Below, one piece after another: positions 33,492-37,200 of a DNA stretch of 64,000 nt. Numbering within the stretch: position 1 is the stretch's first letter; each line of letters starts with the position of its first letter. The position numbers were made by a program, and so were the translations under genes. The stretch is from positions 29,721,955 through 29,785,954 of the forward strand of contig OX381704.1 of NCBI GenBank assembly GCA_947462335.1, written 5' to 3'. The stretch comes from Harmothoe impar. Its lineage: Eukaryota > Annelida > Polychaeta > Phyllodocida > Polynoidae. The notes beneath the pieces were generated by a model. The model worked only from the letters and a program-made list of their open reading frames with translations. It was not told the DNA's origin and did not search any database.

Positions 33492-33558
33492 CTTTCATTT
33501 GAAGATCGAACTCGTACGTATTCTCCCGGTCCTTCTTGGATTTCCTATCCAGCGCCAT
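33492..33558 (-). CDS. SRGAP: SLIT-ROBO Rho GTPase-activating protein, first coding exon
   Basis: On the minus strand the ATG at 33,558 opens 22 codons plus one base before a consensus donor (AAAG|GTAAGG at 33,491). The peptide reads MALDRKSKKDRENTYEFDLQ then MK, matching the start of vertebrate SRGAP proteins at K-x-KKD-x-E, E-[FY]-D-x-Q-x-K with no gap; this begins the F-BAR domain that binds membrane. SRGAPs are F-BAR/RhoGAP/SH3 proteins acting on Rac/Cdc42 at the plasma membrane. Only this exon is visible; the rest would lie to the left, outside the window or undetected. The neighbour FAM72 in head-to-head orientation strongly supports the identification, because vertebrate SRGAP2 and FAM72 are paired the same way. 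Confidence 0.8.
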
Positions 33559-34297
33559 GTCGGCTGCTAGTTCCAGTACAATCCCAGAATTATTTCACAT
33601 GAGTTTCCACGGTCCCCGTCTCGTCCCACACCGAACACCGTCTGCCACTCAGAAATATGGCGGGCTCGGAACAGCACGTCGGGAACCCCCTGTCACGTGA
33701 TATTCAATAATACACATACTTTTGTGACGTACCCAAAACGTGCGCTAAGCAGAGACTGATGACGTCAAATTTAAAGGTCTCGCCCCGTCTGCTTGTTGTT
33801 ATCGACCGACCAATCAGAGTACAGTTTAGAAACAAACTAGCCAATGAAAACTTCTCTTTTAGCCGACATGCGGCACACCGTCACTCTTCACCCACAGTTT
33901 AGCTTCTCTATTTTCTTACCATTTCCATCTTAGAATCGGGTCTGAGAGCGAAATAGGCCATAACAGGATGATGGCCGAGTGGTAGTGCTTTGCTCGGACG
34001 TGTCATAGGATATTTCAAGCTACATTTCTCGGAAATACCGTTTCTTTCGGACATAGATGGGACGCTAAGATATTAGTACACCATTCCTTCATCCATCGGT
34101 ATCATCATTTGGTCAGAATTATTTGAACCGTGCAATAACTAAGCACGATAAGTGGGAGCGTCACTGCGGAAACTGTCAGCTGTGCGTCACATCGCAAGAA
34201 GACAAGTGCCCGTTCAAACAGGTCCCCTTGCTCAATATTTGGCTGTGTTCTCGCCGTTCAAGTTCCCTCACAAGGAACCCCGGACATTTAACCCAGT
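33559..34297. promoter_or_regulatory. Bidirectional SRGAP / FAM72 promoter
   Basis: The 739 bp between the two start codons are CpG-rich relative to the flanks. Visible motifs: ATATGGCGGG (YY1-like, about 33,655), CACGTG (33,694-33,699), TGACGTCA CRE (33,760-33,767), CCAAT boxes (33,810-33,814 and 33,841-33,845, both followed by CAG or GAA), and TTTGAA (34,122-34,127), which resembles the CHR element of cell-cycle genes. No TATA box is evident. The motif set suits a shared housekeeping/cell-cycle promoter; activity is inferred. Confidence 0.6.
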
Positions 34298-37200
34298 ATG
34301 ACGAGCAGGAAAAATCTACACCCAACATTTAGACGGAAACATGTCGTCCAGCTAGACTGTAAATACTGTTCAAACATGGTCTGCGCGAGGGGCATGAAGG
34401 CCATACTTCTCGCCGACACTGCCGTAGAATTATATTCCACGGATCTACCGCCCACGGAGTAAGTAAATGACTCAACAGTGAGGATCTCTATGATATAAGC
34501 CACTGGTAAATTTATAGGTACACTAGATACATCAACATGTAAGCAAAGGTTGTAACTGTGGCCTGAAACTCACAAAGACGAAGCTAAACAAAGCAAAGGG
34601 GGCGTGGTCCCGTGGACGTGGTCATACGTCAATCACTCATCAGTGACAGTGTAGTCTGTAGGCCTGGTACTGTACCCTGTACAGGCTGTAGTGTAGTGAG
34701 TGTAGAATGTGTAGTCACAGTGTAGAGGGACCAGGGGTCTGAGACAATTGTAATTGGTTCCCAGAGCAGACCTACATTTGCATTTGCACAAATGTGCATA
34801 CGCCATATAAATGATGAATTTTACTACTAGTACTTTATTTTGTCATTATAGACTGCGTAGACTATGCCTGAAAATATGACTGCTGGTCTAGAGGGGTCGA
34901 CCCCCCCCCCCCCCCCTTCCCCACTTTGCAAAATTCTGCACTCCCTTAATACATGTACATGCACTTGCATTTCAAGATTGCTCTTGTCACAGTTAAGGCT
35001 CAAGCTTGTCACCTTTTACTATAAAGAACACACTGGCTGAGTCACATGTGACAGTTGTGTAGCTTGTTGCAGATAAGAATTCAGTGAAGAAATGGCTATC
35101 CATAAAAAGTATGATACATGAATCATTCCCTATCAAAGTTTAAACATTGTCCAAAATCGGCCTGATGTTCGCCTGATGTTAAATAGGGGAGCTTTCTTAT
35201 CCCTCATATGATAAAAACAGCTGAAAACAAATGACCCGTACAGTTATACGTCAGATATTATTACCCACATGACATGGGGCCAATAAGGATCTTAGTCAAT
35301 ACACTTGAGACATCACCCAGTATGACGAGCAGAAAAAAAATATACTTGTGCTCTTCTTCTTTCAAGATAGACCTATGCATGCCCAGCTGGAGAGAAATAG
35401 TCAATGGGCAGTGAAAGTAGCACTGGAAGTCAATATTTACATGTTCACTACAAAATATAATCAGCACTGGTCATATGTGTACATTTGTAGTACACTGAAC
35501 AGTTTATATCCTGCAATTTATTAATGAGATGTTATTGGGCGATAGTTTGAATGTTTTGCACTAAATGTGATATCAGGAAAGTCAGTTATGTTGATGAGTA
35601 AAAGTGAACTTGTAGAGTATTCAATCTACTCAACCCCATATTGTCTAAGCCTAAGGCAGTGTATGTAAGAGGGCATGTGAAGGAACTAACAGTGTGTCTA
35701 TGATTTATACTGCATAATAATGCGACAATACATTGTAGTCTGTACACCTCCAAATGAATGGTCCATGACATATATACACAATGTAATGGTCAGCTTTGGT
35801 TAACTTTGAACTGATCGGGCTGTAGGACAATTGGACAGAATGGCAGTTTAACAAGACCATTCGACGGGACTTCATTTTAAAAGACTTAAAACATGTCATT
35901 GTCATATATTGTTTAGTAGTTTACTGGACAATAAAGTGTGAGCAATCGACAAAAGAAAGAGTGGTCGTCTGACAATTTCCCAAGCAAATAATAGATATCT
36001 AAAAAGCAGGGCCATTTGAGGTACGATGAGATTAGTTTTTACATATACTGCATACTAGTATCTATTACCACATTTATGGAAAAGAGTAAAAGATGTGTTC
36101 AATCGTCCTGTACAACGAGACGAGTTGACAAGTCACAAAGATTCCGTCGAATAGTTCCACCTGCCAAACCCGCAATCTGTGGAAATTTCCCTTTCCATTC
36201 TGATCTCTTTTCGCCCTTTTTCGCTCCTTTCGTCATATATATATAATGAGCAAATCTGCCTCTGATCAGAATATATGCATCGTCATCATTTGTCATTTGT
36301 TACATGCACATGTATCTAACCTATATTGTCCAATATGTCTTATCTGACTTATCGTGTTTCCTTTTTCATTGTTGCAGGTCAGTAGACCTTGTCTATGACG
36401 CATATGGCACAGAGAAATGTAAATGCAAGATAAAGGACGTCGCCTGTTTAGGATGGTAAGGGCACTTTTATTTTTTATATTTCGTTATGTATACTCTTAA
36501 CAGTTTATTCAACTAATTATGCTTTACATTGCATTAGAGTTACCACGCACCTCCTTTCTGCAAAGAGAAGTGCCATTTTCTTAGTTTGAAAATAGCATAA
36601 ATAATACATAAACAGACTTATTTCTTTGACGTTGATTATGTGGTACCGTATTAAAAGCAATGGCAGTATAATAAATCAGCATTACGGTATTTTTCGATAT
36701 AACGTCAGCTATCAAATGCGTCGAACAGGAGTGTGTATATGCACAATACTGAAGCCATTTTATAAGTTGGAAATGTGTTTGGATTTTCAGTGGAAACGTA
36801 GTAGGATACACGGTGGTGCGGCCTTGCAGTCTTTGTTTGGAGTCTTGTAATAATGGACATCTATGGATGTTCCACAGCCATGCTATAACAGGCCACGATA
36901 GACTTAACAAATCAGGTAGGTTTAGACCAGTTTCATATGCTTTATGTCTAAAAGATATGTACTATATCGGGAGATGACATGATAAATGTATTCACATGGA
37001 CAGGTCAAAGATTGATGGATAGTACAAGTCTCCTTCCTAGCTTATAGGTTTAGCCATGGTTTTGTTATACGTATATCGTGAATGGCAACATATAATCAAC
37101 TTTGATTGCCTAAGAAATATATCTTACGTTGTACCCATTATATTACCTTAAAAAATAGATAAATATAATTTGCATCACATTTTATACCTTCATTGCTGCC

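What the first reader, a model, noticed from the sequence alone, without database searches (positions are those of the whole stretch)
33492..34458. FAM72 and SRGAP are head to head, as in vertebrates
SRGAP exon 1 (minus) and FAM72 exon 1 (plus) start only 740 bp apart. The FAM72-SRGAP2 pair, multiplied in the human lineage as A-D copies, is known to share an intergenic promoter. Finding the pairing in an apparently invertebrate genome implies the bidirectional unit is ancient and maintained.
Basis: partly seen in the sequence, partly recalled or inferred. Interest (0 to 1): 0.75.

Follow-up and report, generated by a model that had tools for sequence, protein, structure and literature searches.

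The report
Ancient head-to-head SRGAP and FAM72 genes
In what looks like an annelid worm's genome the genes SRGAP and FAM72 start back to back, 739 bases apart, as they do in vertebrates, so this gene pair, made famous by its multiplication in humans, is probably much older than vertebrates.

Summary
Observation confirmed. FAM72 is a complete four-exon gene on the + strand (34298-37306; Pfam PF14976, E 8e-64). The 22-residue exon on the - strand (33558-33492) is the first coding exon of SRGAP. SRGAP exons for F-BAR, RhoGAP and SH3 lie on the same strand of the same chromosome. Exon 2 is 168,661 bp away and its splice phase fits exactly (…QMK|D MRQQL…). The start codons face each other across 739 bp.

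SRGAP places the animal beside Capitella (99/99), so it is most likely an annelid, not a vertebrate. Searches of this 1.5-Gb genome found one locus for each gene. In all five other lophotrochozoans named in both of my (capped) protein listings, FAM72 and SRGAP lie on a contig of identical length; in Solemya their locus tags are consecutive.

This contradicts a published statement that species other than notochord-bearing vertebrates lack the pair. The FAM72-facing exon is of the type that begins vertebrate SRGAPs, so the same start site has probably been inherited since before protostomes and deuterostomes split. The intergenic stretch holds the only strict CCAAT pair spaced 30-34 bp in 256 kb.

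Shared promoter activity and co-expression are inferred, not shown. Orientation in the other five species was not visible.

The parts
33492..33558 (-). SRGAP first coding exon (class A, FAM72-facing): MALDRKSKKDRENTYEFDLQMK + G, donor GTAAGG starting at 33491
   Evidence: joins in phase to exon 2 at C1:29586784
33559..34297 (.). intergenic region between the two start codons (739 bp), presumed bidirectional promoter
   Evidence: CpG observed/expected about 0.8-1.2 over 33400-34400 against 0.65 for the window
33809..33847 (+). two NF-Y-type CCAAT boxes (RCCAATSR at 33809 and 33840), 31 bp apart
   Evidence: the only RCCAATSR pair spaced 30-34 bp on either strand in 256 kb, among 71 single sites
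33760..33767 (.). palindromic CRE-type site TGACGTCA
   Evidence: 28 in 256 kb
33693..33701 (.). USF-type E-box TCACGTGAT
   Evidence: TCACGTGA 22 times in 256 kb
34122..34127 (+). CHR-like TTTGAA about 170 bp before the FAM72 start codon (weak: a hexamer)
   Evidence: chance not computed
34298..34458 (+). FAM72 exon 1 (coding)
36378..36455 (+). FAM72 exon 2
36791..36915 (+). FAM72 exon 3
37209..37306 (+). FAM72 exon 4 with stop codon

Best explanation
This is the lophotrochozoan (annelid) counterpart of the vertebrate SRGAP2-FAM72 divergent gene pair, inherited from before the protostome-deuterostome split. SRGAP and FAM72, each found at one locus, are transcribed away from a compact 739-bp region between their start codons. 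Shown: the two genes, their orientation, one locus each, the splice-phase fit of the SRGAP exon, and equal contig lengths for both genes in five other lophotrochozoans. Inferred: the region works as one open, CpG-enriched bidirectional promoter, in which the CCAAT pair 31 bp apart (an NF-Y arrangement that I recall as typical of G2/M genes), with CRE and E-box sites, drives FAM72 in dividing cells and also serves the class-A start of SRGAP. SRGAPs of relatives have several alternative N-termini on the same exon 2, so this is probably one of several SRGAP starts; in this animal no other start has been established.
For: FAM72 PF14976 at 8e-64 and complete gene structure. SRGAP exons 2 to SH3 on the same strand, with RhoGAP 2e-45, FCH 4e-16 and SH3 1.5e-13. 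Exact phase-1 junction giving GAC=D, the residue that all 22 invertebrate rows classed as class A carry there. Profile of 20 invertebrate class-A N-termini picks this exon alone from 7447 candidates. All 4 FAM72 hits in the genome are this gene; 9 of 13 SRGAP hits are this locus and the other 4 match only query residues 531-680, the RhoGAP part. SRGAP tree: own + Capitella 99/99, vertebrate SRGAP1 apart. FAM72 tree: window within a 10-row clade holding Capitella, 98/96. Strict CCAAT pair unique in 256 kb.
Against: No transcript, chromatin or reporter data. No E2F consensus (TTTSSCGC or TTSSCGC) in 33300-34330, although the vertebrate unit is described with E2F and CHR sites; CHR-like hexamers are common by chance. 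Equal contig length stands in for identity of contig and gives neither orientation nor distance, except adjacency suggested by the Solemya tags; in Owenia and Patella it is only a shared chromosome-sized contig. Intron 1 is very long (168.7 kb) and its splicing was not seen in a transcript of this species. The Capitella, Lingula and Patella SRGAP models listed begin with other N-termini, and the Solemya and Owenia models lack the N-terminus, so the class-A exon was not seen in the five linked species. Owenia does not group with this animal and Capitella in the SRGAP tree; that fork is unresolved.
Confidence: 0.78

Rival explanations
1. The neighbourhood is ancient but passive: SRGAP and FAM72 are old neighbours kept because breaks in that spot are rare or because SRGAP's long first intron holds regulatory elements, and each gene has its own separate promoter with no shared control.
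For: 739 bp between start codons is room for two promoters. SRGAP proteins of relatives show other N-termini joined to the same exon 2, so SRGAP regulation need not depend on this region alone. PMC12672016 passages say the distant group of divergent pairs (median 976 bp between start sites) is less synchronised.
Against: The spacing is tight in a 1.5-Gb genome in which the adjoining SRGAP intron spans 168.7 kb with large transposable elements. The strict CCAAT pair, CRE and E-box lie inside the region.
Confidence: 0.18
2. The pairing arose independently in this lineage and in vertebrates.
For: I could not see orientation or spacing in any third lineage; the linked species' SRGAP models do not show the class-A exon.
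Against: Equal contig lengths in five lophotrochozoans of three phyla (annelid, mollusc, brachiopod), consecutive tags in Solemya, and here the exon facing FAM72 is of the type that begins vertebrate SRGAP1 and SRGAP2.
Confidence: 0.03
3. The 22-residue exon is a chance open stretch or belongs to another gene.
For: The 22 residues alone found nothing in the PDB set; tblastn with SRGAP1 did not return it; intron 1 is unusually long.
Against: Score 45 against a best of 22 in 60 simulated windows and 18 as next best in 256 kb; only place above threshold in the profile test; exact phase, ATG, donor and junction residue. Class-A N-termini join the same exon-2 sequence in mollusc, chelicerate, millipede and vertebrate proteins.
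Confidence: 0.01

Closest known systems
Vertebrate |-SRGAP2-FAM72-| divergent gene pair (PMC7957592, passages seen)
   Same: FAM72 with four exons; SRGAP beginning with a homologous N-terminus (that vertebrate exon 1 ends at residue 22 is recalled, not tested); divergent transcription; presumed shared intergenic promoter
   Different: Here one SRGAP locus, not SRGAP2 among four 2R paralogues (SRGAP1/2/3, ARHGAP4; PMC8851675 passages); 0.74 kb between start codons against a 4-kb intergenic region stated for the human pair; no E2F consensus found; host groups with an annelid, whereas the review says species other than notochord-bearing vertebrates lack the pair
Human-specific SRGAP2-FAM72 copies (divergently paired gene family of PMC12672016, passages)
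   Same: Same gene pair, divergent orientation
   Different: Copies made within the human lineage; here a single locus
Divergently paired genes with bidirectional promoters in general (PMC12672016, passages)
   Same: Opposite strands, start codons under 1 kb apart, CpG-enriched interval
   Different: Start sites and co-expression not measured here; the outgroups named in that study are fly, worm and yeast

Membership tests
FAM72 (PF14976) | full-length match to the family profile | tested here: met
   residues 9-153 to profile 2-145 of 145, E 8.2e-64
SRGAP | F-BAR/FCH, RhoGAP and SH3 domains in that order | tested here: met
   FCH 4.2e-16, RhoGAP 2.1e-45, SH3 1.5e-13 in the assembled 756-aa model
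SRGAP | window exon spliced to the F-BAR exon | tested here: met
   phase 1 on both sides, GT-AG, junction residue D; in silico only, no transcript of this species
Divergently paired genes | opposite strands, 5' ends facing | tested here: met
Divergently paired genes | inter-TSS distance under 1000 bp | not testable with these tools
   start codons are 739 bp apart; start sites unknown
Divergently paired genes | shared regulation or co-expression | not testable with these tools
   no expression data in session
Vertebrate SRGAP2-FAM72 unit | homologous genes with a homologous SRGAP N-terminal exon facing FAM72 | tested here: met
   10/22 identity to SRGAP2 (recalled; from residue 5 on checked in PDB 5i6j) and 8/22 to SRGAP1; the vertebrate exon boundary and phase were not tested
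Vertebrate SRGAP2-FAM72 unit | CHR element beside the FAM72 start | tested here: inconclusive
   TTTGAA at 34122; a hexamer, chance not computed
Vertebrate SRGAP2-FAM72 unit | E2F site in the intergenic region | tested here: not met
   no TTTSSCGC or TTSSCGC in 33300-34330; variant sites not excluded
Vertebrate SRGAP2-FAM72 unit | host is a notochord-bearing vertebrate (as the review states) | tested here: not met
   sister to Capitella 99/99 in SRGAP; this speaks against the stated restriction rather than against homology of the pair

The most novel reading that the evidence does not exclude
The FAM72-SRGAP bidirectional promoter is a single inherited regulatory unit at least as old as the bilaterian ancestor and is also lost as a unit: in insects the FAM72-facing class-A start of SRGAP is missing (0 of 60 scorable insect proteins, against 14 of 39 scorable named non-insects), and no named insect appears among 119 FAM72 hits, while SRGAP survives from other first exons. 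If so, coupling of the FAM72 cell-cycle gene to one SRGAP isoform has been selected for over half a billion years.
Probability: 0.35. Interest if true: 0.78.

Novelty: new member of a known kind. Interest (0 to 1): 0.6.

Why it matters
The SRGAP2-FAM72 pair is discussed, in the papers I saw, as a vertebrate or human brain feature; a review (PMC7957592, Figure 1 legend) says that species other than notochord-bearing vertebrates do not show it. Finding it intact in an apparent annelid, with linkage signs in a brachiopod and molluscs, moves its likely origin before the protostome-deuterostome split and so before cortex or the vertebrate genome duplications. Explanations of the pairing must then rest on something general, such as coupling a G2/M gene to a membrane-shaping RhoGAP isoform. 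It also makes the question testable in worms and molluscs, and by loss: lineages without FAM72 can be checked for loss of the same SRGAP start exon.

Tried and rejected
PDB search with the 22-residue exon alone found nothing; too short to be informative. The first SRGAP protein search gave no invertebrate information: the named rows among the 120 of 3432 shown are vertebrates. tblastn of the window with an SRGAP1 N-terminus found neither the exon nor a downstream one, which first looked like a problem; the chromosome showed why (intron 1 of 168.7 kb). Considered and rejected: an exon of another gene; a vertebrate host; a second FAM72 or SRGAP locus; another class-A exon closer to exon 2 (none in 256 kb). 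A second, class-B SRGAP first exon at C1:29661154-29661010 looked promising (good donor, right phase, junction residue N) but its score (29) was one above the next candidate in the same scan and below chance hits of other query types (up to 31), and a class-B profile did not list it among the best 8 shown; I no longer count it as evidence. The spliced model downstream of SH3 (below about C1:29552672) is unreliable and not used; several micro-exons were forced, and some early exons were set by hand. One search ended with a script error after printing its result. Prior reports of the pair outside vertebrates: searches listed none by title or abstract start, but the lists of 18, 20 and 68 were cut (20 of 27, 15 of 61, 12 of 193). 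Of the 26 papers I saw passages of four (PMC7957592, PMC12672016, PMC8156310, PMC5898914); in the last two the passages shown spoke of the human copies only. PMC8851675, PMC11933467 and PMC8851819 were also searched for passages (the last had no match). The 2012 ancient-microsynteny paper (doi recalled) is not held, so a listing of this pair in some supplementary table is not excluded.

Full report
What is there. The window is C1:29721955-29785954 of a 1.51-Gb genome in 736 contigs. On the + strand lies a complete FAM72 gene: exons 34298-34458, 36378-36455, 36791-36915 and 37209-37306, with GT-AG introns, 153 aa, Pfam PF14976 at 8.2e-64. On the - strand an ATG at 33558 opens a 22-residue exon ending at 33492 with donor GTAAGG. 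The start codons are separated by 739 bp.

Is the minus-strand exon SRGAP? Yes. A vertebrate SRGAP1 protein hits exons on the minus strand of the same chromosome from C1:29586812 down to 29552644. SRGAP exon 2 begins at 29586784 with phase 1, exactly the phase at which the window exon ends, and the joined codon is GAC (D), reading …DLQMK|D MRQQLGEQLKCLD. The joined model carries FCH, RhoGAP and SH3 domains, and its residues 5-186 align to the SRGAP2 structures 5i6j and 5i6r, E 6e-44, with no gap at the junction. Intron 1 is 168,661 bp. In 256 kb of the minus strand no other phase-1 candidate comes near (45 against 18), nor did any of 60 simulated windows (best 22). A profile of 20 invertebrate class-A N-termini, independent of recalled sequence, picks this exon (E 0.00096; the next place has E 8) out of 7447 candidates.

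Other starts of SRGAP. SRGAP proteins of relatives show several different N-termini joined to the same exon 2. The window's exon belongs to the type that begins vertebrate SRGAP1 and SRGAP2 and is seen in 9 of 25 scorable molluscs, 4 of 9 chelicerates and 1 of 2 myriapods (class A, threshold and grouping mine). Rows dropped as too short or lacking the junction: 2 of 27 molluscs, 1 of 10 chelicerates, 6 of 66 insects, 1 of 2 annelids (Owenia). The 11 unnamed rows (8 class A) were kept out of the comparison. The one scorable annelid (Capitella), the brachiopod and the nemertean row show other N-termini. A candidate class-B exon in intron 1 of this animal (C1:29661154-29661010) did not stand up: its score is hardly above chance in the same scan and a class-B profile did not list it among the rows shown.

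Which animal. In a 29-row SRGAP tree the animal is sister to Capitella with 99/99 and vertebrate SRGAP1, the only vertebrate paralogue included, stands apart; Owenia, the other annelid, is unresolved. In a 35-row FAM72 tree it lies in a 10-row clade with Capitella, 98/96. It is most likely an annelid; no species name was available. All 4 FAM72 hits in the genome are this gene. Of 13 SRGAP hits, 9 are this locus and 4 elsewhere match only query residues 531-680 (RhoGAP part); 42 of 46 candidates were scored.

Linkage elsewhere. The protein listings carry the longest contig per cluster. The species named in both the FAM72 listing (119 rows) and the second SRGAP listing (120 of 1282 shown) are Capitella, Lingula, Solemya, Owenia and Patella. 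In Solemya the locus tags are consecutive (ScPMuIL_008937 and 008938). For Capitella and Lingula these are small scaffolds, so linkage is close; for Owenia and Patella they are chromosome-sized, and sharing one is weak evidence. Equal length is a proxy for the same contig. Orientation was not visible.

The intergenic region. CpG observed/expected is about 0.8-1.2 over 33400-34400 against 0.65 for the window, although stretches elsewhere, such as the retroelement, are richer. Two RCCAATSR sites 31 bp apart on the + strand form the only such pair (30-34 bp) among 71 sites on both strands of 256 kb; plain CCAAT pairs at that spacing occur 6 times, this one included. A CRE (28 in 256 kb) and a TCACGTGA E-box (22 in 256 kb) are also present; at those densities about 0.08 and 0.06 are expected in 739 bp if sites were evenly spread, which they are not. 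Spaced CCAAT boxes are, from memory, a mark of G2/M promoters, which would fit FAM72's described G2/M expression (PMC7957592). No E2F consensus was found, and the CHR-like hexamers prove nothing. Four upstream ATGs lie between the CCAAT pair and the FAM72 start, so the FAM72 start site may lie closer to its ATG than the CCAAT boxes suggest.

Against the literature. PMC7957592 (introduction and Figure 1 legend, passages) says only notochord-containing vertebrates carry the pair and other species do not. PMC12672016 (passages) counts it among human divergent pairs, which it defines by under 1000 bp between start sites, whereas PMC7957592 gives a 4-kb intergenic region; its outgroups are fly, worm and yeast. 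The listings, some of them cut, showed no report of the pair outside vertebrates; most of those papers were not opened, and supplementary tables and subscription journals were not searchable. SRGAP1, 2, 3 and ARHGAP4 form a 2R quartet (PMC8851675), so one pre-duplication SRGAP beside FAM72 is the expected ancestral state.

A pattern worth testing. 0 of 60 scorable insect SRGAP proteins have the class-A N-terminus against 14 of 39 named non-insects (Fisher p 4e-7, not corrected for shared ancestry, and drawn from clustered isoforms in a list cut at 120). No named insect is among the 119 FAM72 hits, in a search that needs shared 5-residue words and in which many rows have no name. If FAM72 and the facing exon vanish together, the unit is inherited and lost as one. 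Some hymenopteran N-termini (MFKLAGRQEWEAWTK) might be worn class-A exons, which would weaken this.

Verdict. It is a known kind of unit in an unexpectedly old lineage.

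Noticed in passing
C1:29661154-29661010 (L021:1010-1154), minus strand, inside SRGAP intron 1: A weak candidate for a second SRGAP first exon (LRRSKR motif, donor GTGAGT, phase 1); not supported by a class-B profile.
   Followed up: yes
window 34291-34321 and 35315-35345: The stretch around the FAM72 start codon (ACCCAGTATGACGAGCAG...) is repeated in FAM72 intron 1, 31 nt at 87% with the first 18 bases identical, 1,024 bp downstream.
   Followed up: no
window 14799-19767, + strand: Retroelement that looks DIRS/Ngaro-like (name recalled): a 410-aa frame not scanned, a reverse transcriptase frame (PF00078, 5e-12) and a frame weakly like tyrosine recombinases (PF00589, 0.007, below cut-off), inside SRGAP intron 1.
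   Followed up: partly
C1:29684640-29702332 (L023-L025): A cluster of large open frames including an integrase with chromodomain (PF00665 1.5e-10, PF00385 6e-9) and an ATPase-like frame (below cut-off), resembling a Maverick/Polinton (name inferred), inside SRGAP intron 1.
   Followed up: partly
P0240-P0359: None of 60 scorable insect SRGAP proteins listed has the FAM72-facing class-A N-terminus, and no named insect is among the FAM72 hits.
   Followed up: partly
window 33960-34000: ATGGCCGAGTGGTAGTGCT resembles the start of a tRNA-Leu/Ser gene (A box, recalled), but ARAGORN finds no tRNA.
   Followed up: partly
window 62908-63999, + strand: A 364-aa open frame with coiled-coil look running off the window; one sub-threshold Pfam match (TBCA_PH, 0.027).
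   Followed up: partly
FAM72 listing: Many of the 119 FAM72 rows are chytrid and other early-diverging fungi, so the protein is probably older than animals.
   Followed up: no
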